NCBI GenBank assembly: GCA_017516745.1 | Contig: JAFXBF010000004.1 | Span: 1 to 64,000, forward strand | Source: Clostridia bacterium | GTDB taxonomy: Bacteria; Bacillota; Clostridia; Oscillospirales; Acutalibacteraceae | Direction: 5' to 3' | Length of the DNA: 64,000 bases | Shown here: positions 1 to 15,661 of the stretch, piece after piece | How the letters are laid out: each line of letters opens with the position of its first letter | Position numbering within the stretch: the stretch's first letter is position 1 | Notes under the pieces: generated by a model | The model's database searches: none | The model's input: only the letters and a program-made list of their open reading frames with translations | Told to the model about the DNA's origin: nothing | Position numbers and translations under genes: made by a program

Positions 1-137
1 ACGATTACGAGGATTTCAGCAATCCTGCATCATACGCAATGGAAGTCAACGGCGACGGCTTTGTCGATGATTCCGATATTGCAATGGTTAAGCGTTACTA
101 CGCTTACATCATTGATGATATTCCGCAGACCCGATAA
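1..137 (+). CDS. C-terminal end of a dockerin-bearing secreted protein (5' truncated by window)
   Basis: Only the last 44 residues are present; the reading frame begins at base 3 and ends with TAA at 135-137. The residues around VNGDGFVDDSDIAMVKRYY match the second calcium-binding repeat of a type I dockerin, which has D/N at the loop positions followed by a helix. In cellulosome-type systems a dockerin docks an enzyme onto a cohesin module of a scaffold or anchoring protein. The next gene downstream, and the gene at 12239, carry cohesin-like modules, so the context fits a docking system. The catalytic or binding part lies outside the window and cannot be named. Dockerin assignment is fairly sure; everything else is unknown. 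Confidence 0.75.
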   Translation, partial: DYEDFSNPASYAMEVNGDGFVDDSDIAMVKRYYAYIIDDIPQTR

Positions 138-170
138 GCAAAACGCATTAAGTTTTATTGTCTTATAATT

Positions 171-198
171 CACTCTCCGTGCTTCGGCACGGAGAGTG
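171..198 (+). terminator. Perfect 12-bp stem hairpin after the dockerin gene
   Basis: CACTCTCCGTGC, a TTCG loop and GCACGGAGAGTG form a perfect hairpin 33 bp after the stop codon. The T tract after it is poor (GTTAAAGG), so it may be a weak terminator or an RNA-stabilising hairpin in the leader of the next gene. Confidence 0.5.
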
Positions 199-234
199 GT
201 TAAAGGAAAAATATCACAGGAGGATTTCAGCTAA

Positions 235-3200
235 ATGAAACTCACAAAGAAAGTTCTCAGCATTATCCTCGCTGCGGCTCTCGTTCTTGGTTCAGTAGCA
301 GTAGCTGCAAACGCAGCAGATATTGTTTACGGCCTTGAAGGCTCCGTACTTACTATGAGCGTAACATCCGATAAGGATGTTGCAGACGGTAAGGCAGAAG
401 TCAAGCCCGGTGAGAAAATCACAGTCAGCGTTGCCTATACAACAAACTTCTACCCCGGTAGCGCCGGTGTTGACCTTTTTGTATGGACAAAGGGCGTTTT
501 TGATGACGCTGCTACAGTCGCTACAATGGTAGGCGCAGATGATTATTGGGATGTTCTTGCAAACTTTCCCCTTAAATCCGGTTACCCCTCCGACTACCCT
601 GCAACAAGCTACTCAGGTTATCTCAACACCCGTGGTGAGTTGACAGATTATGTTGGTGGCGAACTTGAAGTACTTGATAACGAAGTTTTCTACACATTCG
701 AGTTCACAGTTCCCGAGGATGCAGAAATCGGTTCAGTAGTTGATTTCGTTATTCCTCAGTCCAAGGTTTACGGCGGTACAGGCTCCACTCGTGGCTTCAT
801 CCGTCAGAACGTCAGTGATTCCAACATCTACGACGTTGTTGCTTCCAGCTACTGCGAGACAGTCAACGTTGACTCTCTCCAGATTACTGTTGTTGAAGAC
901 AAACCCGCAGAGCCCGAAAAACCCGAAATCGTTTACGGTCTTGAAGGCTCCGTTCTTACAATGGACGTAACATCCGATAAGGACGTTGCTGACGGTTTTG
1001 CAGAGGTTAAGCCCGGCGAAAAGATCACAGTTAACGTTGCTTATACAACAAACTTCTACCCCGGTAGCGCCGGTGTTGACCTCTTTGTATGGACAAAGGG
1101 CGTTTTTGATGATGACGCAACAGTCGCTACAATGGTAGGCGCAGATGATTATTGGGATGTTCTTGCAAACTTTCCCCTTAAATCCGGTTATCCCTCCGAT
1201 TATCCTGCAACAAGCTACTCAGGTTATCTCAACACCCGTGGTGAACTCACAGACTACGTTGGTGGCGAGCTTAAAATCCTCAACAAAGAAATATTCTACA
1301 CATTTGAGTTCACAGTTCCTGAAGATGCAGAAATCGGCTCCGTTGTCGATTTCGTTATTCCCCAGTCAAAGGTTTATGGCGGTACAGGCTCCACTCGTGG
1401 CTTCATCCGTCAGAACGTCAGTGATTCCAACATCTACGACGTTGTTGCTTCCAGCTACTGTGAGACAGTCAATGTTGACTCCCTCAAGATCACAGTCGTC
1501 GGTGAAGGCGGCGGCGATCCCGTTGTTGAGTACGCTGACCTTACAGCTCTTAAGGCAGCTCTCGACAAGGCTGCAGTTGCTGATACAGCAAATTGCACAT
1601 CCGCAACAGTAGCAGAATTCAACGCAGCTAAGGCAGCAGCTGAGGCTCTCAACGTTGAAGGCACACTCAAGGATCAGCAGGAAGCTGTTAACGCAGCAGC
1701 TCAGAGACTTGAAGATGCTATCACAGGCCTCAAGAAGCTTGACAAGGTTAACTACGAAGCACTTGAAGCAGCTAAGGATGCATACGAGGCAAAGGTAGCT
1801 GACAAGGCTAACTACAGCAACTGGGCTGCTTACGAAGCTCTCTACAACACAGCAGCAGCTATCGACACAACAGTTGTTTACGATGACGAAGCAGGTTCCA
1901 TCCAGGCAGCAGTTGATGCAGCAGCTTCCGCTCTTGCAGACTTCGCTCTCGTTGAGTACGGCAAGGTTAACTACACAGCACTTAACGATGCTATCGCAGC
2001 ATACGAAGCAAAGGTTGCTGATAAGGACAACTACAGCAACTGGGCAGATTACGAAGCTCTCTACAACGCAGCTAAGGCTATCGACCAGTCTATCGTTTAC
2101 GACAAGAACGGCGAGCAGGCAGCAGCTGACGAAGCAGCAGCAGCTCTCAACAACTTCGTTCTCGTTGAATACGCAAAGGTTAACTACGATGCACTTAACG
2201 ATGCTATCGCAGCATACGAAGCAAAGGTAGCCGATAAGGATATCTATGCTAACTGGGCAGATTACGAAGCTCTCTACAATGCAGCTAAGGCTATCGACCA
2301 GTCTGTCGTTTACGACAAGAACGGCGAGCAGAAGGCAGCTGACGATGCAGCAGCAGCTCTTAACGCATTTGTACTCGTTGAGTACGCAAAGGTTAACTAC
2401 GATGCACTTAACGATGCTATCGCAGCATACGAGGCAAAGGTAGCCGATAAGGATATCTATGCTAACTGGGCAGATTACGAAGCTCTCTACAACGCAGCTA
2501 AGGAAATCGACCAGACAGTTGTTTACGACAAGAACGGCGAGCAGGCAGCAGTTGATGCAGCAGCAGACGCTCTTGCTAACTTCCAGCTTGAGGAGAAGAC
2601 CCTCAGCTATGACAAGTGGAATGCAGCAGTTGATGCTATTCCTGCAGACCTCGCAGGCTTCAAGCCCGCTTCCGTAACAGCTTATGAGGCAGCTAAGGCA
2701 GCAGCAGAGGCTGACAAGGCAGCAGCAGTTGAGGCTCTCGACCAGGCAGCTCTCGACGCAGCAGCAGACGCTCTCACAGCAGCTATCGCTCTTCTTGAAG
2801 AGAAGGCTGACAACTCCGCTCTTGCAGCAGCTATCGCTCGTGCAAGCGCACTTCTTGAAGAAAACTACACACCCGATTCCTGGGTAGCAGCAGACCTTGC
2901 AAACGTTCTTGCAGCAGCTAACGTTGTTCTCGCTAACGGCGATGCAACAGCTGAAGAAATTGCAGAGCAGGTAGCAGCTATCGAAGCAGCAGAAGATAAG
3001 CTCGTTGTTAAGGCTGACAAGGCAGCTCTCCTTGAGGCTCTCCAGGCAGCTCAGGCTCTTGTTGAAAACGAAGCAGCTTACACACCCGCTTCCTTCGCAG
3101 AGGCAAACCTTGCAGCAGTTATGGCTGACGCACAGGTTGTTTATGACGATGACAACGCAACAGCTCAGGCTGTAGCAGACGCTATCACAGCCCTCAAGGC

Positions 3201-4740
3201 AGCAGAAGCTAAGCTCGTTCTCAAGGCAGACAAGACAGCTCTTGAAGCAGCTATCAACACAGAAGTAGTTCTTGAAAACGCTACAGCAGAAACACTCGCT
3301 GAGTATAATGCTAAGCTTCAGGCAGCTCAGGCAGTTCTTGCTGATGACAACGCTTCCGAGGAAGACGTTCTCACAGCTACAAACAACCTTCTTGCAGCTA
3401 TCGACGGTATCAAGTACCTCGGCACTTGTGATTATGACGAGCTCAACGCTGTAATCGCAGAGGCAGAAGCACTCAATCCCGACGATTACACAACAACATC
3501 CTGGTACTCACAGGCTTACCTCAACGCTTACCTTGACGCAGCTAAGGAAGTTGCTCCCGATATGATCGCTGACGAAGCAGGCGAAAACCAGGCTATCATC
3601 GATGCAGCAGCACTTGCACTCAGAACAGCTATCGATACTCTCGAGCTCAGAGCTAACCTTGCAGACCTCAAGGCAGCTATTGCCGCAGAGCCCAAGGTTG
3701 CTGAAGAGTATGCAACAGAAGACACATGGGCAGCTTACGCTGAAAAGCTTGCAGCAGCTCAGGCTATTGTTGACGAAGAGTACGCAGTCGGCGTAAGCCG
3801 TCAGGCTGAGGTTGACGAAGCAGCAGCAGCTCTCGTAGCAGCTAACGACGCTCTCGTTGAGGCAGACGCTGACTACACGGCAGTTGAAGAAGCTCTTGCT
3901 TACGTAGAGACTAAGGGCGAGCTCAATCAGTATACACAGGCTTCCGTTAAGAAGCTCCAGGCAGCTATCGATGCAGTAGTTTACGGTCTCGGTATCTCCA
4001 AGCAGGATGAAGTTAACGCAGCAGCAGAAGCAATCGTTAAGGCAGCAGACGCTCTCGAAATTTCCGAGGCAGCTGTTTCCAACGTTGAAATGCTCGGCGG
4101 CGAATACCTTGCAAGAGAGACAAGACAGTATGAAGTTACTGTTGCAGGTGCTCCCTCAAGAGTACAGTTCATCAACGAAAAGGGCGGCACAATTACATTC
4201 GACAGAAAGAACAGAAATGTTACTGTTGTTTCCTACGATGCAGAAGGCAACGTTGTTGACTACGCAGAAGTAGAACCCGCATACGAAGTATGGACAGTAT
4301 CCGCTTCTCTCGGCGAAGGCACATACCAGGCAAAGGCTAAGATCGGCTCCGCTTGGGAAGCATTCACCTACGAGTTCGAAATCGAGTTCGTTGACAAGGC
4401 AGATGACGAAATCTACTTCGTAGCAGCTCCTGCAGACGGTTCTGCAGAAGCAGGCAAGACTCTTGAGCTTAACGGCAGCGGTTCACCCGCAACTATTACT
4501 GTTGTTGTTCCCAACACAGTTGTTAAGGTTCAGCTTGCATTCTCCATCGGCTGTACAACAACTTACATTGAGACATCCGCTAACGCAACTGTTGTTGATA
4601 ACGGTGACGGTACATCCACATGGACTCTCATCCGTAACTTCTCCAACATCGGCACTTACGAAATGAGCCTCAAGCTCAAGGATAAGGCCGGCTGGTACGA
4701 TGCAGTTACAGAAGCTATCAACGTAACAGTTAACAAATAA
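235..4740 (+). CDS. Secreted cohesin-like / FIVAR-repeat surface protein, 1501 aa
   Basis: A signal peptide (about residues 1-27, MKLTKKVLSI... AANA) is followed by two nearly identical ~192-residue beta modules at about 30-222 and 233-424, joined by a Pro/Glu linker. Each has the layout of a cohesin-like sandwich: VKPGEKITVSVAY near the start, FYTFEFTVPEDAEIGS in the middle and DSLxITVV at the end. Residues ~430-1280 are Ala/Asp/Glu-rich three-helix repeats of FIVAR type, including four very similar ~71-residue units (AYEAKVADK...NWADYEALYN). Two Ig-like modules, also seen at the end of the protein at 12239, close the chain. There is no LPXTG signal, membrane anchor or dockerin, so attachment to the cell is unexplained. 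The start is fixed by AGGAGG at 218-223. The most likely role is a long stalk presenting cohesin-like receptors for neighbouring dockerin proteins; this is inference, since the N-terminal modules could bind another ligand. Confidence 0.8.
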   Translation: MKLTKKVLSIILAAALVLGSVAVAANAADIVYGLEGSVLTMSVTSDKDVADGKAEVKPGEKITVSVAYTTNFYPGSAGVDLFVWTKGVFDDAATVATMVGADDYWDVLANFPLKSGYPSDYPATSYSGYLNTRGELTDYVGGELEVLDNEVFYTFEFTVPEDAEIGSVVDFVIPQSKVYGGTGSTRGFIRQNVSDSNIYDVVASSYCETVNVDSLQITVVEDKPAEPEKPEIVYGLEGSVLTMDVTSDKDVADGFAEVKPGEKITVNVAYTTNFYPGSAGVDLFVWTKGVFDDDATVATMVGADDYWDVLANFPLKSGYPSDYPATSYSGYLNTRGELTDYVGGELKILNKEIFYTFEFTVPEDAEIGSVVDFVIPQSKVYGGTGSTRGFIRQNVSDSNIYDVVASSYCETVNVDSLKITVVGEGGGDPVVEYADLTALKAALDKAAVADTANCTSATVAEFNAAKAAAEALNVEGTLKDQQEAVNAAAQRLEDAITGLKKLDKVNYEALEAAKDAYEAKVADKANYSNWAAYEALYNTAAAIDTTVVYDDEAGSIQAAVDAAASALADFALVEYGKVNYTALNDAIAAYEAKVADKDNYSNWADYEALYNAAKAIDQSIVYDKNGEQAAADEAAAALNNFVLVEYAKVNYDALNDAIAAYEAKVADKDIYANWADYEALYNAAKAIDQSVVYDKNGEQKAADDAAAALNAFVLVEYAKVNYDALNDAIAAYEAKVADKDIYANWADYEALYNAAKEIDQTVVYDKNGEQAAVDAAADALANFQLEEKTLSYDKWNAAVDAIPADLAGFKPASVTAYEAAKAAAEADKAAAVEALDQAALDAAADALTAAIALLEEKADNSALAAAIARASALLEENYTPDSWVAADLANVLAAANVVLANGDATAEEIAEQVAAIEAAEDKLVVKADKAALLEALQAAQALVENEAAYTPASFAEANLAAVMADAQVVYDDDNATAQAVADAITALKAAEAKLVLKADKTALEAAINTEVVLENATAETLAEYNAKLQAAQAVLADDNASEEDVLTATNNLLAAIDGIKYLGTCDYDELNAVIAEAEALNPDDYTTTSWYSQAYLNAYLDAAKEVAPDMIADEAGENQAIIDAAALALRTAIDTLELRANLADLKAAIAAEPKVAEEYATEDTWAAYAEKLAAAQAIVDEEYAVGVSRQAEVDEAAAALVAANDALVEADADYTAVEEALAYVETKGELNQYTQASVKKLQAAIDAVVYGLGISKQDEVNAAAEAIVKAADALEISEAAVSNVEMLGGEYLARETRQYEVTVAGAPSRVQFINEKGGTITFDRKNRNVTVVSYDAEGNVVDYAEVEPAYEVWTVSASLGEGTYQAKAKIGSAWEAFTYEFEIEFVDKADDEIYFVAAPADGSAEAGKTLELNGSGSPATITVVVPNTVVKVQLAFSIGCTTTYIETSANATVVDNGDGTSTWTLIRNFSNIGTYEMSLKLKDKAGWYDAVTEAINVTVNK
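322..1500 (+). repeat. Tandem near-identical duplication of the cohesin-like module (606-bp period)
   Basis: The sequence starting GTTTACGG at 325 recurs at 931, and most of the intervening codons are the same at DNA level, including long identical stretches around the YPGSAGVDLFVWTKG and YGGTGSTRGFIRQNV residues. A small number of mostly synonymous differences points to a recent duplication or ongoing gene conversion. Confidence 0.9.
1744..2600 (+). repeat. Four tandem ~213-bp FIVAR repeat units
   Basis: Units begin at about 1744, 1963, 2176 and 2389 with AAGGTTAACTAC. Units two to four are nearly identical at DNA level. They encode helical alanine-rich segments of the stalk. Such arrays commonly change copy number by recombination. 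Confidence 0.85.
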
Positions 4741-4790
4741 TTGACCACATCTTATTATCATAAAATGTTTTTTTAAAACATTTATTCTCC

Positions 4791-4830
4791 GTGCCCCGGG
4801 TCCAAACAGCCCGGGGCACACCCCTTTTTT
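4791..4830 (+). terminator. Rho-independent terminator of the 1501-aa surface protein gene
   Basis: GTGCCCCGGG (4791-4800) pairs with CCCGGGGCAC (4810-4819), followed by ACCCC and a run of six T. Confidence 0.9.
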
Positions 4831-4906
4831 AAATGAAAAATGAAGAATGAAAAATGGAAATTCGGGTGCGGCTGTCCGGCCAATCATTCTTCATTCACCA
4901 TTTTCC
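4831..4906. repeat. Palindromic MITE-like repeat, family shared with 42434-42553
   Basis: The arms AATGAAAAATGAAGAATGA and TCATTCTTCATTCACCATTT are imperfect inverted repeats around a GC-rich core (TTCGGGTGCGGCTGTCC). The same core occurs in reverse orientation at 42464-42490, also between AT-rich inverted arms. There is no coding potential. From here to the promoter at 5091 I see only AT-rich spacer and a short GGTCGTC fragment of the GTAGGGG repeat family. Confidence 0.65.
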
Positions 4907-5090
4907 CTTTGGCGGCCTTTGGTCGTCTTTTTATATTTGTAATATGGAAAAATGGGTTGCTTTTTGTCGGTTTTGGGGCGAAAAAGACAATTAAACAAAA
5001 AGAAGTGCGGAATTATGTGACAAATGCACAAAAATGAAAGTTGAACATAATATTTTTACAAATTTATATATAAAAATAAAGTAAAATCAA

Positions 5091-5119
5091 TTGACTAATT
5101 GAAATATAAGTGATACAAT
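5091..5119 (+). promoter_or_regulatory. Sigma-A promoter of the dockerin metallophosphoesterase gene
   Basis: TTGACT (5091-5096), a 17-bp spacer and TACAAT (5114-5119). The predicted leader is about 90 nt and contains GC-rich inverted segments (5140-5190), but I could not match it to a riboswitch class. Confidence 0.8.
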
Positions 5120-5215
5120 TGATACACCAATAGTATAAGTGGCGGTGTCGTTAAAAACGGGGCACGCACGGGTACTAAAAGGGAAATCCCAAAAATTCGC
5201 AAGGAGGAATTAAGC

Positions 5216-8200
5216 GTGAGAAAAATGAATAAAATTCTCTCATTAGTTCTGTCGGTTGCAATGGTTATCGGTCTTGTGCCGATGATGACCATTTCATCAA
5301 GTGCGGCTTACAATCAGAAGTTCACTTTCGATGAAAATGGCGAATTCACCATTGTTCAGCTTACCGACATTCAGGATGACAAGGAAGTCCACGAGGACGC
5401 ACTTGCCCTCATCACCAAGGCCATGACAAGGTACAGTCCTGACCTGGTAGTTTTCACCGGTGATAACATTGCCGGTAAAATGAGCGCAAGCGACACCTGG
5501 TCATCAATCAGTCAGTTCCTGGCACCTATCATCAACGCAGGTGTCCCCTATGCAATGACCTTCGGTAACCACGACGAAGAAGATGCAACACTTGTCAATA
5601 CTCCCTCAAAGCAGGAGCAGTATGATTATGCAATCGGTCTTTCCGATTACGGTGTTGACTTCGACGTTGACAACCTCAGCGGTACAGGTACCGGCGGTAT
5701 CCCGATTTATTCACACGACGGCAGCACAATCAAGTTTGCTGTTTTCCCTGTTGACTCGGGTAACTACGACGAAAACGGTGACTACGACCACGTAAAGGCT
5801 GACCAGCTCCAGTGGTACGAGCAGCAGGTCGCTTCCTACGGCAGCGTTCCTCACCTCGTTTTCCAGCACATTATCGTTCCCGAAGTTTACACAAAGCTTC
5901 TTGTTAAGGCCGAGAGCACAACTCCCGGTGCTGTACAGGGTCACGGTAACTGGAGCAGCAACTACTATGTTCTCGACCCCTCTAACCCCACAATCACGGG
6001 TCAGATGAACGAGCAGCCCTGTCCGTCAGCTATCAACGGCGGCCAGTATGACGCAATGGTCAGAACAGGCTGTATGGTCGGTAACTTCGTAGGTCACGAC
6101 CACACCAACAACTTCGTTGGTACAACAGCAGACGGTATCACAATCGGTTATACCGAGGCTGTAACAATGCACTCCTACGGTAACCACGACCCTGCTTGCC
6201 GTGTCTTCACAGTTAAGGAAGACGGTACATACACCTCCAAGAACGTCCGCCTTTCCGAAATGGGCGTTGAGGATGCAGATGATTACGAGCACGACACAAT
6301 CGCAGGTACTCCCACAGTTCCTTCAAGACTTGTTGTCGGTGCAGCAGGTAACGGTCTTACCCAGCAGAAGCTCGGTAACGTTATCCAGCAGTACACAGTC
6401 AACCACAGAACACAGGCTCTCTACCCCAACGATATGGCTATCACCATTGACCTTGCGGCAGATATTACAGACGTTACCCTCACACCTCAGAGCGGTATCA
6501 ACGTAAGCGCCCCCACAGTCACAACAAGTGCTGACGGCGCAACAAAGACCTATAACTGGACTATCACGGGCGGTACTGCAACAGCAGGTACAGCTGCAGA
6601 GTTCAAGTTCACATACAAGAACGCTGCCGGTGCTGAGTTTGCTCAGTACGCTTACAGCTATGTTGACGATATCAGAACTCCCGCAGGCTACTACTTCTTC
6701 ACACGTAACTACCGTGGCGGCGACAGCTCAGGCAACTGGGTATCCCAGACATACGTTATGACCGTTCTCGGTGACACTGCTTACGGTGACGCACGTTCAC
6801 AGACTGACTCCGCACTCTACGGTTACGAGGGTAAGGAAGTCGGCTCCTGGACAAACGCTACAGCAGGTTACTATAACTACACCAGTCAGGATGACGCAGG
6901 CTTCACAGGTATGGGCGACAGCAACTACGGTCTTATCTATACCTCTCCCTCCCGTGGCAACTGCCGTACTCTTTACGACTTCCCCAGATTTACACAGGCA
7001 GGCAAGAGCCCCGTATCCACAATTTACGTAGATACAAGCGTTCACTCAACAATGGCTGACCTTCACCTGAGCGTCAACTATTGGAGACACTTGGTTCCCG
7101 ACCACGACCTTACAACAGATTTCAGCCTCTACTTCAAGATTGGTGACGTCGGCTACTCAACCGGCAACCTTCAGGAAGGCACAGCAGGCACAACTTCAAT
7201 TAATGCCAATATCTCCACAATCACTCTTGCAGCGGCAAGAGGCTCCAACAACAACTTCCAGATCAACGGTACTCTGCCCGCAAACGGCACACAGTACACA
7301 ATGATTTCCAGAGGTTACACATACTGGAACGGCAACTACTCAACAGATCATTACACTTATGCTCCCGTTCTCCTCTCCTTCGTTACCTACAACAAGGCAG
7401 CGCTTAAGGAGCTCGTTAACGCAGAGCGTACAGCAATGCGCCAGACAGAAGACGTTGTTTACCGTGCAGCCTTCAAGGAAGCATACAAGCAGGTTAACAA
7501 GATTAACACAACACAGGCTGATATCGATGCAGCTATCGTTCTTCTTAACTCCGCTATTGATGCTCTTACCTTCGACGGTACGGACGTTTCCAACAACGGC
7601 CAGTACGCAGGTAATTCAACTGTTCCTCCCGTTATCTATATCGCAGGCAACGGCTACGGCCTTGCTCAGCAGCCCACAGGTACAACAATCCAGAGCGGCG
7701 TAATCGACTACGGCTCAAACACAATTAACAGAGATTACTCCAGATTCTACTTCAACGCTCCTCAGGGCGCAACAGGCGTTTCCGTAACAGTTACGGAGTC
7801 CAACGGCAACCCCGTTGAATACACATGGGATGCAGGTACAAACTCCGGCCAGATTACAGGCGGTACTTCCGCACAGAACGCTTTCATCAAGTACGTATTC
7901 CAGTACACACTCGGCGGTAAGGTTTACGAGCAGGTTGAGGCTTCCGCTGTTCTTCCCGCTCCTCAGGCAGCAGGTTGGACATCAATGGTTAAGGGCTCAA
8001 CAACAATGAGCGCAACTGTTTACAGAACTGTTATTGAAACAGCCATCCTCTTCGGTAACGGCGGCGTTCTTCCGGCAGGTGCTTACTACACCGGTCAGGA
8101 CGTATTCAGCGGCGCTAACTACGGTATCAACCTTGACCCCGGCTCAAACAACAACTTTGTCGGCTACGGCTATCAGAAGGTTGCCGGTACAGGTATGGCT

Positions 8201-11200
8201 TGGTGGGAAGTTACAAGAGCCCGTCAGTCAGACGGTACAGACTGGCTTGCTGCTCACGACGGTCAGAGCGGTAAGATTGACTTCTGGTCAGATCCCGGCA
8301 GGGATATGGGCCACAGAGCACGCTTCGATATCACAATCGACAGCTCCGTTATCTCCAACCTGTCCTCAATCGGCACAGGCTTCAAGTATATCTCACTTCA
8401 GAACCAGAACCGTTCCTCTAACGGTACCTCCAACAACTCCAACCCGACGGTTCTTCAGGTTACAAACCACGCCTTCTTCAACGGCTTTGTTTCCTTCTCT
8501 GACGTTGTTAACGGCAGCAACAAGACAACCGCTGTCAGACTTGGTACATCCATCAGTGCAGAGGGTGCATCAGGCAAAAACACCTACGGTGTAAAGGCAG
8601 GCGACACGCTTTCACTTACCTACGGTTTTGAAGCTGATAACCTTCCCCCTGCAGGTAACTACTCCTACTGGACAGAGATAACCAACGAAGGTAACTACAA
8701 GACCTACGCCCACTATATGTGGAACTTCACAATCAACTACGTAGACAAGACAGCCATCCGTAACTACGTTGCAACTGAGGAAGAGAACTACCGCCAGCTT
8801 GCAGACGGCTACGACAATTCCGACGGCTCCTTCACAGCATTCCAGACAGCACTCGCAAAGGCTAAGGCTGCTATCACAGACGTTACCCTTAACGATGCTG
8901 AAACAGCAAATATTCAGACAGAGCTTCAGACAGCCATTGCTAACCTTAAGTATCTCCCGGCTGACTATACAAAGCTTCAGGCAAAGGTACTCGAGGTTCG
9001 TATTCAGAACACGGACGGCACATATTCCTACAGACCGCATCCGGCTAACGACCCCACATACTACAACACAGGCGATTACTATCCCTGGAACAACTTCAGC
9101 TCAACTAACGAAGTTGATATCGCCATCAAGGACATCAACTGGAACTACGACGTTCGTTACCAGAACAAGATTGATATGATGGTTGACGCTATCGATGTTG
9201 GTTGGATTAACGTTACACTTGTTAACGCAGATTACACCAACGTTGACAGATTCCTCACCTATAAAGAAGGTACAGGCGAAAACGGTGCAGCAGGCGGCGC
9301 AAAAATCAAGGCACCTGCAAAGTACGGCTACCTGATGCTTGCAGACCCGATGCTTCCGGCAGAGTACTACACAACAGACACCTACAACGCTTGGACAAAT
9401 GCTTGTGCAATCGGTCAGTCCGACCGTTCACTCAAGAAGCCTGACCAGCCCGTTGTTGACGGCTACGCAGCAGCTCTTGAAACAGCATATAATAACCTCA
9501 CTCTCCTTTCCGCTGATTTCAGTCCCCTTGACGAAGTTCAGGAAGCTGTTCAGGAAAGCTTGGATATGACAGTTGAGGTTGTTGACCCCTCCAACGCAGA
9601 AAACAACTACCCCATCTCCTACTACAGCCCCGAGCTTATCGCTCAGATAAAAGAGAAGCTTGCTCAGCGTGATGCAGGCCTCACAATTATCGAACAGGAT
9701 AAGGTTGAAGGTCTTGTTGTTGAAATCGACGCCCTCTATCAGGAGCTCAGCTCAACTCTTAACAAGGTTGATATGAAGTTCGCTAATGAGCAGAAGGCTA
9801 TCGAGGCAACCTACGAGGCAGAGGCAGAGAAGTACTACACAGCAGACAGCTGGCAGAGACTTGTCACCGCCCGTGCAGCAGCAAACGACAGACTTGCTTC
9901 CAGAGAGGCTGACAGCCAGGTAACAGTTAACGCTGTTGCTAAGGAAATCTACGACGCACGTAACGCTCTTGCTTACAACGCAGCAAATTACGGCACAGTC
10001 AACGAATACCTTGCTCTCATCCGAGCAGAAGAGGCAAACAAGGATTGGTACTCCAACTGGTCCGCTGTTGACGTTGCAGTTGCAGCCGTTGTAACAGACC
10101 TCGATATTACAGAGCAGGCAAGAGTTGACAAGATGGCAGCAGACCTCAAGGCTGCATACGAAGGCCTTACACTTAAGGATGCTAACTATGCAAACCTCAA
10201 GGCAGCTATCGACCTTGCAAACGAAAAGAACAAGGACGCTCAGTACTACACAACTGAAACATATTCTGCATTTGCAGACGCTCTCGCAGCAGCTAACACA
10301 ATGTACACAGACGGCCAGACTGCTCCCCTCAAGATTAACGAGCAGGCAAAGGTTGATGCTGTAGAAGCAACACTGCGTGATGCAATGGGCAAGCTCGCAT
10401 ATCAGGATGCTAACATCAATCCTCTTGTAGAGGCTATGAACACATACAACCAGACAGTATTCGGCGGTATGTACATGGGCGAGTATCCCGACGCTGACGA
10501 AGACGGCTACGAAGACATCCTCGACGGTGTCAGAAGCGCTTACGCTCAGGCAGAGCAGTGGATTGCAGCATACGAAGCTGATGAGCTCACAATCAAGGAC
10601 AACACAAGCATTGCCCTTGCAGCAACTAACCTCGAAACCCTCAGAGCAGCACTTCCTGCTTGCTATATGATGGTTTACGATGCACTTATCGATCCCTACA
10701 CAGGCGAAGCACTTTACAACTACGCTACAGACGGCAAGCTTTCCGCTTACATCTCCACTCTCGAGGCCAACCTCAAGAAGTCATACACAGATGAATCCGT
10801 CAAGGACGTTGTAAACGCTCTTAAGGCTATCAACTACAACTACAAGATTGACGACCAGGCTCTCGTTGATGAGGCTTCCGGCCCCGTTTACGAAACAGTC
10901 GCAATGCTCGAGTACAGACCTGCAAACCTTGACGAACTCAACGCCGCTATCGCAGCAGGTGATGAGAAGGTCGCAAAGGCAGAGTCCACAGACTGGTTCA
11001 CACCCGACTCATGGGCAGACTATGAGGACGCTTACAACGCAGCAGTTGACGTCCGTGATGCTGACCCCGCTTACACAGCACTTGAGCAGGATATCGTTGA
11101 CGAAGCAGCACAGGCTCTTGTAGATGCTACAGCAGCTCTCGAGTATGTAGACGCTGATTACGATGCACTCAACGCAGCTATCGCAGAAGCAGACGAACTC

Positions 11201-11854
11201 AACAAGAACGACTGGACACCCGAAACATGGGCAGACCTTGAAGACGCTCTTGCAGACGCTAAGGCAGTTGCAAAGAACCTTAAGATCGACAGCCAGGCTA
11301 CAATCGACACAGCAGCTCAGGCTCTTGTTGATGCTATCGAAGCTCTCGAGTCCGGCGTACTTGACCTCGTAGGTATCGGCGACACAGTCATCGACAACGA
11401 AAGAGGTTTCATCTACGGTCTTGTTGATGCAGACTTCGAGGAAATCACAGACCTTGTTGCTCAGGGCTATGCAGAGGTAGTCGGTAACGGTTATGTCAAG
11501 TGCACAGCTGTTAACGGTAACGCTAACCTCGGTACAGGCGCAAAGGTTGAACTCATCCGCGGTACAGACGACGGCGATGACACCAACAACGAAGTTGTCA
11601 AGACATACTACATCGTAATCTTCGGCGACCTCGACGGTGACGCATTCATCACAAACGATGATATCTACGACCTCACTCAGTACGCTGCATGGAACGATAC
11701 AGAGTACGATTACGAGTCACAGATGAATCTGCCGCAGGTATTCGCAATGGATATCGATGCTAACGGCGAAGTAACACTTGACGATGCTTACTATGTACTT
11801 GAATACGCTGCATGGAACATCGATTCCGTTAAGCAGACCTACACAGGCCAGTAA
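5216..11854 (+). CDS. Giant secreted metallophosphoesterase with FIVAR stalk and C-terminal dockerin, 2212 aa
   Basis: A GTG start follows AAGGAGG at 5201-5207. The signal peptide ends near residue 30. Residues ~35-345 form a calcineurin-like phosphoesterase of the Dcr2-like type, with its metal ligands visible: TDIQDD (51-56), GDN (82-84), GNHDEE (117-122), a His near 218 and GHDHTN near 292. Then come several beta modules and, from about residue 1190 to 2050, FIVAR-type helical repeats. Residues ~2135-2205 form a dockerin with two EF-like calcium loops, DLDGDAFITNDD and DIDANGEVTLDD. The enzyme is predicted to hydrolyse phosphodiesters or phosphomonoesters outside the cell, and the dockerin to plug it into a cohesin. 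Both neighbours carry cohesin-like modules. The substrate is unknown. A dockerin on a phosphoesterase is unusual, as dockerins are best known on plant-polysaccharide enzymes. Confidence 0.85.
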   Translation: MRKMNKILSLVLSVAMVIGLVPMMTISSSAAYNQKFTFDENGEFTIVQLTDIQDDKEVHEDALALITKAMTRYSPDLVVFTGDNIAGKMSASDTWSSISQFLAPIINAGVPYAMTFGNHDEEDATLVNTPSKQEQYDYAIGLSDYGVDFDVDNLSGTGTGGIPIYSHDGSTIKFAVFPVDSGNYDENGDYDHVKADQLQWYEQQVASYGSVPHLVFQHIIVPEVYTKLLVKAESTTPGAVQGHGNWSSNYYVLDPSNPTITGQMNEQPCPSAINGGQYDAMVRTGCMVGNFVGHDHTNNFVGTTADGITIGYTEAVTMHSYGNHDPACRVFTVKEDGTYTSKNVRLSEMGVEDADDYEHDTIAGTPTVPSRLVVGAAGNGLTQQKLGNVIQQYTVNHRTQALYPNDMAITIDLAADITDVTLTPQSGINVSAPTVTTSADGATKTYNWTITGGTATAGTAAEFKFTYKNAAGAEFAQYAYSYVDDIRTPAGYYFFTRNYRGGDSSGNWVSQTYVMTVLGDTAYGDARSQTDSALYGYEGKEVGSWTNATAGYYNYTSQDDAGFTGMGDSNYGLIYTSPSRGNCRTLYDFPRFTQAGKSPVSTIYVDTSVHSTMADLHLSVNYWRHLVPDHDLTTDFSLYFKIGDVGYSTGNLQEGTAGTTSINANISTITLAAARGSNNNFQINGTLPANGTQYTMISRGYTYWNGNYSTDHYTYAPVLLSFVTYNKAALKELVNAERTAMRQTEDVVYRAAFKEAYKQVNKINTTQADIDAAIVLLNSAIDALTFDGTDVSNNGQYAGNSTVPPVIYIAGNGYGLAQQPTGTTIQSGVIDYGSNTINRDYSRFYFNAPQGATGVSVTVTESNGNPVEYTWDAGTNSGQITGGTSAQNAFIKYVFQYTLGGKVYEQVEASAVLPAPQAAGWTSMVKGSTTMSATVYRTVIETAILFGNGGVLPAGAYYTGQDVFSGANYGINLDPGSNNNFVGYGYQKVAGTGMAWWEVTRARQSDGTDWLAAHDGQSGKIDFWSDPGRDMGHRARFDITIDSSVISNLSSIGTGFKYISLQNQNRSSNGTSNNSNPTVLQVTNHAFFNGFVSFSDVVNGSNKTTAVRLGTSISAEGASGKNTYGVKAGDTLSLTYGFEADNLPPAGNYSYWTEITNEGNYKTYAHYMWNFTINYVDKTAIRNYVATEEENYRQLADGYDNSDGSFTAFQTALAKAKAAITDVTLNDAETANIQTELQTAIANLKYLPADYTKLQAKVLEVRIQNTDGTYSYRPHPANDPTYYNTGDYYPWNNFSSTNEVDIAIKDINWNYDVRYQNKIDMMVDAIDVGWINVTLVNADYTNVDRFLTYKEGTGENGAAGGAKIKAPAKYGYLMLADPMLPAEYYTTDTYNAWTNACAIGQSDRSLKKPDQPVVDGYAAALETAYNNLTLLSADFSPLDEVQEAVQESLDMTVEVVDPSNAENNYPISYYSPELIAQIKEKLAQRDAGLTIIEQDKVEGLVVEIDALYQELSSTLNKVDMKFANEQKAIEATYEAEAEKYYTADSWQRLVTARAAANDRLASREADSQVTVNAVAKEIYDARNALAYNAANYGTVNEYLALIRAEEANKDWYSNWSAVDVAVAAVVTDLDITEQARVDKMAADLKAAYEGLTLKDANYANLKAAIDLANEKNKDAQYYTTETYSAFADALAAANTMYTDGQTAPLKINEQAKVDAVEATLRDAMGKLAYQDANINPLVEAMNTYNQTVFGGMYMGEYPDADEDGYEDILDGVRSAYAQAEQWIAAYEADELTIKDNTSIALAATNLETLRAALPACYMMVYDALIDPYTGEALYNYATDGKLSAYISTLEANLKKSYTDESVKDVVNALKAINYNYKIDDQALVDEASGPVYETVAMLEYRPANLDELNAAIAAGDEKVAKAESTDWFTPDSWADYEDAYNAAVDVRDADPAYTALEQDIVDEAAQALVDATAALEYVDADYDALNAAIAEADELNKNDWTPETWADLEDALADAKAVAKNLKIDSQATIDTAAQALVDAIEALESGVLDLVGIGDTVIDNERGFIYGLVDADFEEITDLVAQGYAEVVGNGYVKCTAVNGNANLGTGAKVELIRGTDDGDDTNNEVVKTYYIVIFGDLDGDAFITNDDIYDLTQYAAWNDTEYDYESQMNLPQVFAMDIDANGEVTLDDAYYVLEYAAWNIDSVKQTYTGQ

Positions 11855-11880
11855 TTAATCGTTCAGTCTAAACTCTATAA

Positions 11881-11907
11881 CCTGCCTCCCCCTCGCGGGG
11901 AGGCAGG
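11881..11907 (+). terminator. GC-rich hairpin after the giant phosphoesterase gene
   Basis: CCTGCCTCCCC and GGGGAGGCAGG form an 11-bp stem with a CTCGC loop. The T tract is interrupted (GACACAAAAACTTTTT), so efficiency is uncertain. Confidence 0.6.
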
Positions 11908-11927
11908 GACACAAAAACTTTTTCATC

Positions 11928-12162
11928 GTAGGGGCGGATATTATCCGCCCGAAAACGGCAAACGGATAATGCGTCTGATGAGGACGAATATTATCCGCCT
12001 CTGCGATTCGTTTCGCAAACCAAAACAAAAAACGTTTACCTTTAATTCGTCTTATTACCCGTTGGTAAAAACCCTGTCGGATAGGCAATCCGTAGGGGAG
12101 GGGTGACCCCTCCCGACGTTGCCGTGGGCTCCGCATAACGGGAGGGGAAACCCCTCCCCTAC
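11928..12162. repeat. Two GTAGGGG-family palindromic repeats filling the 384-bp gap
   Basis: The first is GTAGGGGCGGATATTATCC at 11928, which is itself palindromic. The second runs from GTAGGGGAGGGG at 12092 to CCCCTCCCCTAC ending at 12162, with inverted ends and inner palindromes. The rest of the gap holds no gene that I can support. The family recurs at 16671, 34666, 50931, 55158 and 57499. Confidence 0.75.
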
Positions 12163-12238
12163 AACAAAATGCGGAAGCGGCCGCGAAGGTGCTTTTACAA
12201 ATCGGGTTTAAGAATATACTAAACAGGAGGACTAATTA

Positions 12239-15200
12239 ATGAAACTCACAAAAAAGATTCTCAGTCTTGTCCTCGCCGTTGCTCTTGTTCTTGGCAGCAT
12301 AGCTGTTGCCGCTAACGCAGCAGATTATGACGGTCTTACCTATGAGGGCTCAGAGCTCGCATATAAGATTGAAGCCGACAAAACAGAGGTTAAGCCCGGC
12401 GAAACAGTTACATTCAGCGTTTATATGAAGAACAACTACTATATCGGTGCTTCCGGCGGTGAATTGTTCCTTTGGACAAGGGGCGTATTCAACGACATCG
12501 CAGAGGCTGATATAGTTGCTTATGGTATCGTTGCTAAAACATACAACGTTACCCCCAACTATGCTCCCCCTACAGCTATGTATCCCTCATCACACGCTTA
12601 TGATGATTGGGCAGGCTACCTTTCTTCCCGTAACGCAAACGCAGGTACAGTTCCGGAAATTATTTCTGACTACCAGCTTATCTACGAAATTACACTCACA
12701 GTTAAAGAAGATGCAGTACCCGGCACAGAAATTACATTTGAAATGCCTGAAGGCTCTCTCAAGTCTCCGGCACAGACAGGCCGTAAGGGTACTATCTATC
12801 AGGCAATGGCAAAATCTGTCGATAACGCCGCAACATCAATCGCTTACTCCGAATCCGTTGACCTTTCCGCAGCAAGCGTAACAATCAAGGTCGCTTCCGC
12901 TGTTGAATACTGCGATTATGCAGCACTTGAAGCAGCAGTTGCAAAGGCTCCAGAGCTTGCAGAAGAGTACTACGATGTTGACGAGTACGCAGCATGGGAA
13001 GCAGCTCTTGCAGCAGCTAACGAGCTTCTCGACGCAGAGCCCCTTGTAAAGGAAGGCGACAACCAGAAGACAATCGACGATGCAGCAGCACTCGTTGAAT
13101 CCACACTTGCAGCTCTTGATGCAAGATATGTTGACCTTGAAAACCTTACAGAAGCAGTTAGACTTTGCAAAACTCCCTCTTACGCAGAGGAGTACTACGA
13201 TGCAGCAGCTTACAAGGCATGGCAGGATGCTTATGCAGCAGCAGAAAAAGCTCTTGTTGATTACGAAGGCGCTCCCGCAACAAAGCAGGGCGAGGTTAAC
13301 GATATTAACAACGCTCTTGTTGACGCTTGGAACGACCTCGTTCCCGTATTTGTTGACCTCACAAAGCTCAACAACGCTGTTGATGCTTACGATGAGCTTG
13401 CTTACGGCAAGGACTACTACGATGCTGACCTCTACGCAGCATGGGAAGCAGCTCTTGCAGATGCAACAGCAGCACAGAAGACATATGACGGTGCTCCCGC
13501 TACAAAGCAGGCAGAAGCAGACAAGTTTGCTGATGACCTTCAGGCAGCATTCACAGCTCTCAATCCCTCTATCCTCGATCTCACAGCTCTCAATAACGCT
13601 ATTGAGGCTTCCGATGAAACGGAATACGCAGCAGAGTACTACGATGCAGCTGAATACGCAGCTTGGGAACAGGCTCTTGCAGATGCACAGGCAGGCGTAG
13701 CACAGTACACAGGCGCTGCTAACACAGCCGCTAACCAGCAGGCAGTTGCCGCTCTTGCACAGGCTCTTACAGATGCATTCGCAGCACTCGACGCACGCTT
13801 TGTTGATACTACTCCCATCACAACAGCTATTGAAGAATCCGTTCTTGAATATGCTGATGAGTACTACGATGCAGCAAAGCTTGCAGCATTCAGGCAGGCA
13901 GTTATGTATGCTAACCAGATTGTTACTTCTTACAGAACTGCTGCCGATACACAGCAGAACCGTGATGTAATTGCTTCATACGTTAACAACGTTCGTGAAG
14001 CTTATGCAGCACTCGATCCCCGCTTTGTAAGCCTTGATGAGCTTCACAATGCTATCAGTGATTACCACGATCCTATGATGGAGCCTGAGTGGTTTGATGC
14101 AAACGAATATGCAGCATGGGAAGCAGCTCTTGACGCAGCTAACGAAGGCTTAACAACCTACGAAGGCAAGGCTGACACAGAAGAAAACCGTGCAGCAGTT
14201 AAAAAGCTTGCAGACGACCTCATCGCAGCTTACAGAGAGCTTGATCCTCGTTCAGTTGATGTTTCCGACCTTGAAGCAGCTATTGCAGAATCCGTTCCCG
14301 CATACGGCGCAGAATACTACGATGCAGCAGCATACGCAGACTTCACAGCAGCAGTAGAAGCAGGTACAGCTATTGTTGATGAAATGGGCGGCGGTGCAGC
14401 TCCCGACACAGAAGCAAACCGCACAACAGTTGCTGATGCAGCACAGGCTATCCGTAATACATTCGCAAAGCTTGCTCCTCAGTTTGTAAGCTATGCAAAG
14501 CTTGAAGAAGCTATCGCTGCTTACGGTGAGGCACCTGAGGCAGAGCTCTACTACACACCCGATTCATGGGCAGCATATATTGACGCAAAGGCAGCAGCTG
14601 TTGAAGCTAACGACAACAGACCCGAGCCTCTCCCCGCAGCAAGCGAAGAGAACCAGGCAGCGGTTGACGCACTTGCAGATGCACTTGAAAAGGCATACAA
14701 CGAGCTTGAAGCAGCAGAGTGCCACGTTATCAGCGTAACTCCTCTCCAGGAAGTTTACGACGTTAACGATACAATCAACTTCGCAGTTCTTGTTGAAGGT
14801 ACAGCAGCTAAGATCCAGATGATTAAGGAAAGCGGCGTAACCTCCACATACGACAAGAACACAAGCGCAGCAGTTATCAGTGTTACAGACAATGGCGACG
14901 GCACAGAAACATGGGTTATCGCTCGTCGTATCTACGAAGAGAAGTACACCGAGTATGCAAAGGCAAAGGTTGGTAAGGTCTGGGATACAGGCGTTACTGC
15001 TTACAGCCTTGAGTGCACAGGTGAGGACGCAGAGGTTAAGAGCGTTGAAGTAACTCTCAACGGTGAGGTTGTTTCCACAGTTCTTCGTTCTGATCTTCCC
15101 ACACTCACAATCGTTACGGGTCCCGCAGCAAAGAAGGTTCGCCTTGTTGATCCTGTAACACGTGGCACAATCACACTTTCAACACCTGCTTCTGTCAATG

Positions 15201-15661
15201 AAGACGGTACAAAGGTCTGGACATACATCAAGAGATACAACGTTGTTAAGCTCTACGATCTCGATGTTTACTTCGTTGGTTCCGACGGTGTAAGCACGGA
15301 TTCCGGCTTCGACTTCGAGCTTAATGTTGTTGAAGAGCTTGAGTCTCAGCTTCCCTCAACCGATAAGGTTGAAGACGCTGTCCTCACAGCAGCAGTTGCT
15401 AAGAAGCGTATCGTAACAGGTGCAGCACAGACCTTCACATACACAACCGATAAGGCTGCTAAGGCTGTCCGCATCATCGACGCAAACGGCAAGATTCTCA
15501 CAACAATCAAGACCGCAACCGTTGAAGGCGATGTAGCAACATGGGTATATGAGTGCACATACAGCTCAATCGGCGACCGCAGCTACACTGCAGAGGTTCT
15601 CTACGGCGAAACATGGCTTGCAGACGCTGACTCCGCAGTAAGCTTCACAGTTGTATATTAA
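12239..15661 (+). CDS. Secreted cohesin-like / FIVAR-repeat surface protein, 1140 aa
   Basis: The start is set by AGGAGG at 12225-12230. The signal peptide is almost the same as that of the 1501-aa protein. One ~190-residue cohesin-like module follows (about 28-217: VKPGETVTFSVYMKNNYY, IYEITLTVKEDAVPG). Eight FIVAR-type units of ~75-80 residues follow (about 222-830), each opening with a D-L-x-x-L-x-x-A-I pattern and carrying a YYDAAEYAAW helix. Three Ig-like modules finish the protein (about 830-940, 943-1040, 1045-1140); the first two resemble the C-terminal modules of the 1501-aa protein. No wall anchor or dockerin is seen. It looks like a shorter paralogue of the 1501-aa protein with a single receptor module. 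Binding role is inferred. Confidence 0.8.
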   Translation: MKLTKKILSLVLAVALVLGSIAVAANAADYDGLTYEGSELAYKIEADKTEVKPGETVTFSVYMKNNYYIGASGGELFLWTRGVFNDIAEADIVAYGIVAKTYNVTPNYAPPTAMYPSSHAYDDWAGYLSSRNANAGTVPEIISDYQLIYEITLTVKEDAVPGTEITFEMPEGSLKSPAQTGRKGTIYQAMAKSVDNAATSIAYSESVDLSAASVTIKVASAVEYCDYAALEAAVAKAPELAEEYYDVDEYAAWEAALAAANELLDAEPLVKEGDNQKTIDDAAALVESTLAALDARYVDLENLTEAVRLCKTPSYAEEYYDAAAYKAWQDAYAAAEKALVDYEGAPATKQGEVNDINNALVDAWNDLVPVFVDLTKLNNAVDAYDELAYGKDYYDADLYAAWEAALADATAAQKTYDGAPATKQAEADKFADDLQAAFTALNPSILDLTALNNAIEASDETEYAAEYYDAAEYAAWEQALADAQAGVAQYTGAANTAANQQAVAALAQALTDAFAALDARFVDTTPITTAIEESVLEYADEYYDAAKLAAFRQAVMYANQIVTSYRTAADTQQNRDVIASYVNNVREAYAALDPRFVSLDELHNAISDYHDPMMEPEWFDANEYAAWEAALDAANEGLTTYEGKADTEENRAAVKKLADDLIAAYRELDPRSVDVSDLEAAIAESVPAYGAEYYDAAAYADFTAAVEAGTAIVDEMGGGAAPDTEANRTTVADAAQAIRNTFAKLAPQFVSYAKLEEAIAAYGEAPEAELYYTPDSWAAYIDAKAAAVEANDNRPEPLPAASEENQAAVDALADALEKAYNELEAAECHVISVTPLQEVYDVNDTINFAVLVEGTAAKIQMIKESGVTSTYDKNTSAAVISVTDNGDGTETWVIARRIYEEKYTEYAKAKVGKVWDTGVTAYSLECTGEDAEVKSVEVTLNGEVVSTVLRSDLPTLTIVTGPAAKKVRLVDPVTRGTITLSTPASVNEDGTKVWTYIKRYNVVKLYDLDVYFVGSDGVSTDSGFDFELNVVEELESQLPSTDKVEDAVLTAAVAKKRIVTGAAQTFTYTTDKAAKAVRIIDANGKILTTIKTATVEGDVATWVYECTYSSIGDRSYTAEVLYGETWLADADSAVSFTVVY

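What the first reader, a model, noticed from the sequence alone, without database searches (positions are those of the whole stretch)
1..15661. Candidate non-cellulolytic cohesin-dockerin system built on FIVAR stalks
Directly seen: two adjacent secreted giants start with beta modules of cohesin-like layout (two copies at 235-4740, one at 12239-15661), while the protein ending at 137 and the 2212-aa phosphoesterase end in dockerin repeats with calcium-loop residues. Established: dockerins bind cohesins in cellulosomes, and FIVAR repeats form surface stalks. Inference: receptor and ligand genes side by side point to a surface complex carrying a phosphoesterase instead of plant-wall enzymes. If the N-terminal modules are true cohesins, this would be a docking system with a new cargo class.
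Basis: partly seen in the sequence, partly recalled or inferred. Interest (0 to 1): 0.78.

Follow-up and report, generated by a model that had tools for sequence, protein, structure and literature searches.

The report
Giant-protein docking cluster carrying a phosphoesterase
A gut bacterium keeps a run of genes for giant secreted proteins that look built to plug into one another through cellulosome-type docking modules, with a phosphate-cleaving enzyme as cargo instead of a cellulose-digesting one; the binding itself has not been shown.

Summary
P0001 (235-4740) and P0003 (12239-15661) begin with divergent cohesin-like modules: a modest AlphaFold2 model matches mainly cohesins (33 of 36 Foldseek hits at E<=1e-3), profile comparison gives 96.9% with bridging sequences and 63% without (100 column-shuffled controls at most 1.8%), and a relative's module passes Pfam Cohesin. 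The 2212-aa phosphoesterase ends in an X module plus dockerin; Pfam misses it, and 2 of 6 orthologues scanned reach the Pfam cut-off. The stump ending at 137 is cut by a contig end; another contig sharing 74 identical bases carries a cohesin-like+X+dockerin adaptor. The order dockerin giant, adaptor, P0001, P0002, P0003 recurs on one contig in three relatives. In 7 of 7 genus genomes with a full-length phosphoesterase orthologue a module gene follows it. None of 12 dockerin matches found in the genome lies on a glycoside hydrolase. Not shown: binding, anchoring, substrate. Non-cellulosomal cohesin-dockerin systems are known; new here are the phosphoesterase cargo and divergent cohesin-like tips on FIVAR stalks.

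The parts
3..137 (+). C-terminal stump (44 aa) with the later part of a dockerin; the rest of the gene probably lies on contig C6, whose last 74 bases equal the first 74 of the window and whose last ORF encodes signal peptide + cohesin-like domain + X + start of a dockerin
235..4740 (+). P0001, 1501 aa secreted scaffold-like protein: signal peptide, 2 cohesin-like modules, 11 FIVAR-like repeats, 2 Ig-like domains
316..900 (+). cohesin-like module A of P0001
922..1509 (+). cohesin-like module B of P0001 (nt 922-1500 is the stretch modelled)
1546..4044 (+). FIVAR-like repeat stalk of P0001
4072..4737 (+). two Ig-like C-terminal domains of P0001, same family as those of P0003
5216..11854 (+). P0002, 2212 aa secreted calcineurin-like phosphoesterase with FIVAR-like repeats and C-terminal X-dockerin
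5348..6280 (+). calcineurin-like phosphoesterase domain; TDxQ, GDN, GNHD, QHI, GHDH invariant in 6 of 6 sequences aligned (P0002, four orthologues, one paralogue)
9341..11335 (+). 7 FIVAR-like repeats of P0002
11366..11614 (+). X module preceding the dockerin, shared with the adaptor proteins
11615..11839 (+). dockerin of P0002 with two calcium loops
   Evidence: orthologues
12239..15661 (+). P0003, 1140 aa secreted protein: signal peptide, 1 cohesin-like module, 8 FIVAR-like repeats, 3 Ig-like domains
12320..12900 (+). cohesin-like module of P0003

Best explanation
The region is the downstream part of a conserved 5- to 6-gene cluster for an extracellular, non-cellulolytic cohesin-dockerin complex. 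Order: a ~1550-aa dockerin protein of unknown function; a ~365-aa adaptor (cohesin-like + X + dockerin; in RGIG2072 followed by a second adaptor with cohesin-like module + FIVAR + X + dockerin); P0001 (cohesin-like modules on a FIVAR stalk); P0002 (phosphoesterase with X-dockerin); P0003 (cohesin-like module on a FIVAR stalk). Most likely the phosphoesterase is held by its X-dockerin on the cohesin-like modules of P0001 and/or P0003, directly or through the adaptor; the FIVAR repeats act as rods, the Ig-like tails attach or orient the assembly, and the enzyme releases phosphate from extracellular phosphoesters near the cell. Shown: gene content, relation of the modules to cohesins, dockerin character (in good part through orthologues), conserved order, kept phosphoesterase motifs. 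Inferred: who binds whom, surface location, substrate.
For: Modules to cohesin: of 36 Foldseek hits at E<=1e-3, 31 name a cohesin in the title and 2 more (3kcp, 4fl4) are scaffoldin chains; best a R. flavefaciens ScaC cohesin (5lxv, E 1.1e-5). hhalign of the 19-sequence module set against 30 PF00963 cohesins 96.9%, E 1.5e-10 (one comparison); 100 column-shuffled controls at most 1.8%; Ig-tail control 0.16%. The G177 module matches our module profile (E 7.8e-4) and, over the same region, PF00963 (28.1 against 24.1 bits). Dockerin: PF00404 at or above its cut-off (22.9) in the phosphoesterase orthologues of G230 (22.9) and G148 (23.4), just under in G018 (22.5), and in the first-gene orthologue of G230 (24.4); loop residues kept in 5 of 5 phosphoesterase dockerins aligned; the mixed dockerin profile A2 retrieves solved dockerins such as 4dh2_B, E 1.7e-7. 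Linkage: in 7 of 7 genus genomes with a full-length P0002 orthologue a module match starts within about 0.5 kb downstream, same strand; two of the seven (G000, G250) had contributed to the profile. Five-gene order on one contig in RGIG2072/G250 (with one extra gene), G230 and G018. Non-cellulolytic: 0 of 12 dockerin matches of the genome lies on a glycoside hydrolase in Pfam. A second locus pairs a cohesin protein (PF00963 over cut-off, with a dockerin-like end) with a secreted phosphoesterase in G000, and PF00963 and P0002-like matches are neighbours also in G148 and G230.
Against: No binding test. The module model is weak (mean pLDDT 56.9; TM-scores by query 0.34-0.47 in the 36 hits). Pfam Cohesin is not reported for P0001 or P0003 at a limit of E 10, nor Dockerin_1 for P0002. 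Dockerin_1 is also not reported for the RGIG2072 orthologue or the G252 tail, and the G254 tail has 19.1 bits, so 2 of 6 orthologues reach the cut-off. hhalign of the genus modules alone against cohesins is only 60-63%, and some bridging sequences themselves hit PF00963. The X-dockerin model is poor (pLDDT 52.9) and finds no dockerin among its PDB hits. In G018 the first and second genes of the cluster show neither Pfam domain at E<=0.1. No anchor was identified on P0001 or P0003. The cohesins of this genome that pass Pfam lie elsewhere and could be the true partners.
Confidence: 0.6

Rival explanations
1. The N-terminal modules have a cohesin-type fold but do not bind dockerins; they bind glycans, host or wall ligands. 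The P0002 dockerin instead docks on another cohesin: the adaptor of the same cluster, the 195-aa cohesin with a C-terminal membrane segment (C11:67070), or the 309-aa cohesin+dockerin-like protein (C26:155698).
For: The modules are divergent, about 195 aa against 139 profile positions of PF00963, and not reported by Pfam; two cohesins over the Pfam cut-off exist elsewhere in the genome; the adaptor's cohesin-like domain is closer to the Pfam model (E 0.0043 in RGIG2072).
Against: Module genes and the phosphoesterase stay adjacent in 7 of 7 genomes, whereas the two Pfam-level cohesins lie about 140 kb away on the same contig and on another contig.
Confidence: 0.25
2. A tandem array of surface proteins that arose by duplication and shuffling of common secreted modules; the dockerin-like ends are stability or folding units and no complex forms.
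For: FIVAR, List-Bact, LRR and dockerin modules are shuffled over many secreted proteins of this genome; PF00404 matches are more widespread in the family than PF00963 matches (201 against 166 of 250 genomes).
Against: In the own genome, RGIG2072 and G230 every gene of the cluster bears a cohesin-like module, a dockerin-like end or both, and the order holds at 53-86% identity of the phosphoesterase.
Confidence: 0.15

Closest known systems
Clostridium perfringens cohesin (X82)-dockerin complexes of secreted glycosidases/toxins
   Same: Non-cellulosomal cohesin-dockerin pairs on large secreted proteins; C. perfringens cohesin structures (2jh2, 2w1n) are among the Foldseek hits. FIVAR modules next to the dockerin in that system are recalled, from no call.
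   Different: In the strain described in PMC12997984 (section 21 read) all five cohesin proteins also have a glycoside hydrolase domain; here the cohesin-like proteins are non-catalytic stalks and the cargo is a phosphoesterase.
Limousia mucinolysome (PMC12997984; outline, abstract, section 21 and passages read)
   Same: Gut Firmicutes; secreted scaffoldins without GH domains; dockerin-bearing enzymes including peptidases; the authors mark cohesins/dockerins that the Pfam models failed to identify.
   Different: Its cargo is mainly CAZymes (21 dockerin CAZymes and six dockerin peptidases in ET540); no CAZyme was seen on the dockerins here. FIVAR has 0 occurrences in that text.
Ruminococcus bromii amylosome (PMC5814915; listing abstract and passages only)
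   Same: Cohesin-dockerin complex of a gut bacterium that is not a cellulosome.
   Different: Starch enzymes as cargo; a scaffoldin with a sortase signal is described there.
Ruminococcus flavefaciens X-dockerin/ScaE/ScaC system (5lxv, 4wkz, 2zf9 by title)
   Same: X-module + dockerin dyads; a cysteine peptidase with X-dockerin binds ScaE (stated in a passage of PMC5590126). An adaptor scaffoldin with one cohesin and a dockerin is recalled for ScaC, from no call.
   Different: A cellulosome; different cargo; no FIVAR stalk known to me.

Membership tests
Cohesin domain (PF00963) | Pfam score over the curated cut-off in the proteins of the window | tested here: not met
   Not reported for P0001 or P0003 at a limit of E 10 (filters drop most matches above about 0.1).
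Cohesin domain (PF00963) | Homology through intermediates and profile-profile comparison | tested here: met
   G177 module: our profile E 7.8e-4 and PF00963 28.1 bits; hhalign 96.9% with bridging sequences, 63% without.
Cohesin domain (PF00963) | Cohesin fold | tested here: inconclusive
   Foldseek points to cohesins (33 of 36) but from a model with mean pLDDT 56.9.
Cohesin domain (PF00963) | Binds a dockerin | not testable with these tools
Dockerin type I (PF00404) | Pfam score over cut-off (22.9 bits) | tested here: inconclusive
   Stump 23.8, met; P0002 not reported; six orthologues: 23.4, 22.9 reach it, 22.5 and 19.1 do not, two not reported.
Dockerin type I (PF00404) | Two F-hand calcium loops | tested here: met
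   In P0002 and four orthologues both loops have D at 1, D/N at 3 and 5, D at 12 (the loop pattern itself is recalled).
Cellulosome | Dockerin-bearing plant-wall glycoside hydrolases | tested here: not met
   0 of 12 dockerin matches of the genome; three of the ORFs are cut: the stump, its probable other part on C6, and L036 at a contig end.
Cellulosome | Multi-cohesin scaffoldin with carbohydrate-binding module and cell anchor | tested here: not met
   Two cohesin-like modules at most (P0001); no CBM reported in P0001 or P0003; no anchor motif by eye.
Calcineurin-like phosphoesterase (PF00149) | Pfam score and metal-ligand motifs | tested here: met
   41.1 against 21.5 bits; motifs invariant in 6 of 6 sequences aligned. 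The first motif is TDxQ, where DxH is common (recalled).

The most novel reading that the evidence does not exclude
A dedicated phosphate-scavenging docking machine: a large, divergent cohesin type, nearly confined to this genus, at the tip of FIVAR rods collects phosphoesterases into a surface complex, extending the cellulosome principle from glycans to phosphate release. The genome has at least nine further matches to the phosphoesterase part of P0002 (listed rows) and a second cohesin-phosphoesterase gene pair.
Probability: 0.3. Interest if true: 0.75.

Novelty: new variant of a known kind. Interest (0 to 1): 0.55.

Why it matters
If the pairing holds, it shows the cohesin-dockerin principle serving extracellular phosphoester hydrolysis rather than polysaccharide breakdown, and adds a divergent cohesin type that the standard Pfam model does not report. 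It would also give a compact docking set (five neighbouring genes) in a gut lineage, useful for orthogonal protein pairs. In the open-licence PMC library no paper holds both 'dockerin' and 'metallophosphoesterase'; cohesin+dockerin+phosphoesterase gives one paper on alignment display, seen in the listing only.

Tried and rejected
Cellulosome: rejected as a membership, since none of the 12 dockerin matches lies on a glycoside hydrolase. X-dockerin fold search: uninformative, low-confidence model. PDB sequence search with the phosphoesterase part of P0002 (395 aa): no hit at 1e-3. PDB sequence search with module profile A3: best 5n5p_A, a putative cellulosomal scaffoldin, at E 0.066 only. Viral contigs was not searched. 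Sortase and SLH were not searched in the genome (the last genome searches went to linkage, the second adaptor and the Ig-like tails; the tails occur in two other long ORFs at E<=0.1). NCBIfam gave low-scoring rows on the FIVAR helices, far under their cut-offs (for example 24.2 against 204.3 and 38.6 against 3000 bits); I take them as chance repeat matches and did not follow them. Whether C6 and C26 are truly adjacent was not proved: 74 identical bases plus the gene order of three relatives; RGIG2072 has an extra 556-aa gene in between, for which the own genome shows X-dockerin and FIVAR matches but no N-terminal module other than that of P0003 and signal-peptide-sized matches.
Full report
What is there. 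The window is the first 64 kb of contig C26 of a 28-contig, 97%-complete genome. Three long same-strand ORFs occupy 235-15661. P0001 is signal peptide, two near-identical ~195-aa modules, 11 FIVAR-like repeats, two Ig-like domains. P0003 is signal peptide, one module, 8 FIVAR-like repeats, three Ig-like domains. P0002 is signal peptide, calcineurin-like phosphoesterase, a long middle part without a clear Pfam match, 7 FIVAR-like repeats, X module, dockerin (signal peptides by eye). The ORF ending at 137 is a 44-aa contig-edge stump with the later part of a dockerin.

Are the modules cohesins? Pfam Cohesin is not reported for P0001 or P0003 at a limit of E 10. Four other lines bear on it, with different weight. 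(1) AlphaFold2 on 7 sequences gave mean pLDDT 56.9, pTM 0.57. Foldseek against PDB still put cohesins first: of 36 matches at E<=1e-3, 31 name a cohesin in the title and 2 are scaffoldin chains (3kcp, 4fl4); the other three are 3lso and two integrin entries (first 50 of 1654 rows seen). (2) A homologue in family member G177 matches our three-module profile (E 7.8e-4) and PF00963 over its cut-off (28.1 against 24.1 bits, residues 122-266). (3) hhalign of 11 genus modules against 30 PF00963 cohesins of the family (the loci) gave 62.8%; adding 8 bridging sequences raised it to 96.9% (E 1.5e-10 for one comparison). Each query was also run against 100 column-shuffled cohesin alignments, maximum 0.9% and 1.8%. 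An earlier 9-module run gave 60.3% against a maximum of 1.8%. The bridging set contains sequences that themselves match PF00963, so the rise is partly by construction; the 11 modules against the bridging set alone give 98.6%. (4) The best PDB sequence match of profile A3 is a scaffoldin chain, but at E 0.066 only.

Are the C-termini dockerins? The stump passes PF00404 (23.8 against 22.9). P0002 is not reported. Of six orthologues scanned, G148 (23.4) and G230 (22.9) reach the cut-off, G018 has 22.5, the G254 tail 19.1, and RGIG2072 and the G252 tail are not reported. Loop residues are kept in the 5 of 5 aligned. The mixed profile A2 finds solved dockerins, and also calmodulins at weaker E (60 of 237 rows shown; the best rows, E 7e-10, are chains named serine protease). 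The X-dockerin model was too poor to use.

The missing half and the full cluster. Contig C6 of the same genome ends with a gene encoding signal peptide, cohesin-like domain, X module and the first part of a dockerin, and its last 74 bases equal the first 74 of the window. Upstream of it lies a 1547-aa protein with a dockerin-like end (found by profile A2, which contains its orthologue; Pfam does not report it; the G230 orthologue has 24.4 bits). In goat-colon MAG RGIG2072 (contig JAFQRA010000030.1; same coordinates as G250:C27) the order on one contig is 1548-aa protein, 363-aa cohesin-like+X+dockerin, 556-aa module+FIVAR+X+dockerin, then orthologues of P0001 (83% identity), P0002 (86%) and P0003 (74%). 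G230 and G018 have the five-gene order without the 556-aa gene. G256 has the first two genes at a contig end. Pfam scores of the adaptor family are all below cut-off: Cohesin 17.7, 16.7, 16.0 and 14.9 bits in four of five, none reported in G018; Dockerin_1 21.7, 16.0 and 13.6 in three of five.

Linkage. The genus set has 11 genomes. Modules are found in 8 of 11 (6 of 6 good-quality). In 7 of 7 a module match starts 0.17-0.5 kb downstream on the same strand; G000 and G250 had contributed sequences to the profile. The four others are 77-86% complete and show only short phosphoesterase matches, one of them (G255:C257) a contig-edge fragment at 53% identity that may belong to an orthologue. Three of the four have no module match; G256 has one, which is its adaptor's cohesin-like domain. 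At family level the first module profile matches 8 of 250 genomes, 4 of these in the genus, while PF00963 matches 166 of 250 and PF00404 201 of 250. Cohesins and dockerins are thus common in this family, but this module type is not.

Cargo. Profile A2 finds 12 dockerin matches in the genome, which include all 9 places found with PF00404. Pfam on all 12 ORFs found phosphoesterase, S8 subtilase, BspA-type LRR, lectin-like, List-Bact or GLUG repeats, FIVAR, cohesin, or nothing besides the dockerin, and no glycoside hydrolase. One of the 12 is the stump, one is its probable other part, and L036 is cut at a contig end. A second locus, C26:154375-156483, has a 383-aa secreted phosphoesterase next to a 309-aa protein with a cohesin over the Pfam cut-off and a dockerin-like end near it. 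Matches to PF00963 and to P0002 are likewise neighbours in G148 (C3) and G230 (C3).

How it most likely works. The dockerin-bearing phosphoesterase docks on cohesin-like tips of FIVAR rods, directly or through the adaptor, giving an extracellular phosphoesterase complex. Gene content, homology, conserved order and kept catalytic motifs are shown; binding, location and substrate are inferred. The main rival is that another cohesin is the true receptor.

Comparison with the literature. Non-cellulosomal cohesin-dockerin systems are known: C. perfringens and the Limousia mucinolysome (PMC12997984: outline, abstract, section 21 and passages read), the R. bromii amylosome (PMC5814915: listing abstract and passages). 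Peptidases and other non-CAZyme domains on dockerins are known (PMC5590126: passages; its abbreviation list includes LRR and a PHP phosphatase domain, context not read). PMC6030884 was read in passages for its reference to the Peer et al. survey. The C. perfringens FIVAR-dockerin structure paper is recalled; the two identifiers I tried are not held. Searches, seen as listings unless said: cohesin+dockerin+FIVAR (3 papers), cohesin+dockerin+phosphoesterase (1), noncellulosomal (47, 20 listed), perfringens (58, 20 listed), amylosome (13), cohesin+dockerin+phosphatase+gut (21, 20 listed), dockerin with metallophosphatase terms (283 holding two terms, 20 listed, none of these with dockerin), dockerin+metallophosphoesterase (0), Acutalibacteraceae (2), dockerin-containing+phosphatase+scaffoldin (10). 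I saw no description of this cluster, but only open-licence PMC papers were searchable and most were not opened.

Verdict. A real, conserved, probably functional docking cluster: new variant of a known kind.

Noticed in passing
L036, L037, L039 (dockerin proteins) and L042:8376-9524 (383-aa phosphoesterase): A similar C-terminal hydrophobic/amphipathic tail of roughly 25 residues, seen by eye only: a possible surface-retention tail.
   Followed up: no
own genome, G000 rows; window 16699-17601 (-): At least nine further matches to the phosphoesterase part of P0002 in the listed rows, and one more calcineurin-like phosphoesterase in the window itself (PF00149 66.6 bits).
   Followed up: partly
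L043:4855-5439 (G000:C11:67070): 195-aa protein: signal peptide, PF00963 cohesin, C-terminal membrane segment by eye; a possible single-cohesin anchor.
   Followed up: no
L035:4218-7385 (G000:C8): 1056-aa protein with List-Bact repeats, FIVAR-like part, a cohesin-like module and a C-terminal dockerin on one chain.
   Followed up: partly
L130:1518-11813, L131:7631-17545 (G252, G254): Phosphoesterase orthologues enlarged to about 3300-3430 aa.
   Followed up: no
window 40345-41925 (+): 527-aa Endonuclease/Exonuclease/phosphatase-family protein (PF03372 35.4 bits), about 25 kb downstream of the cluster.
   Followed up: no
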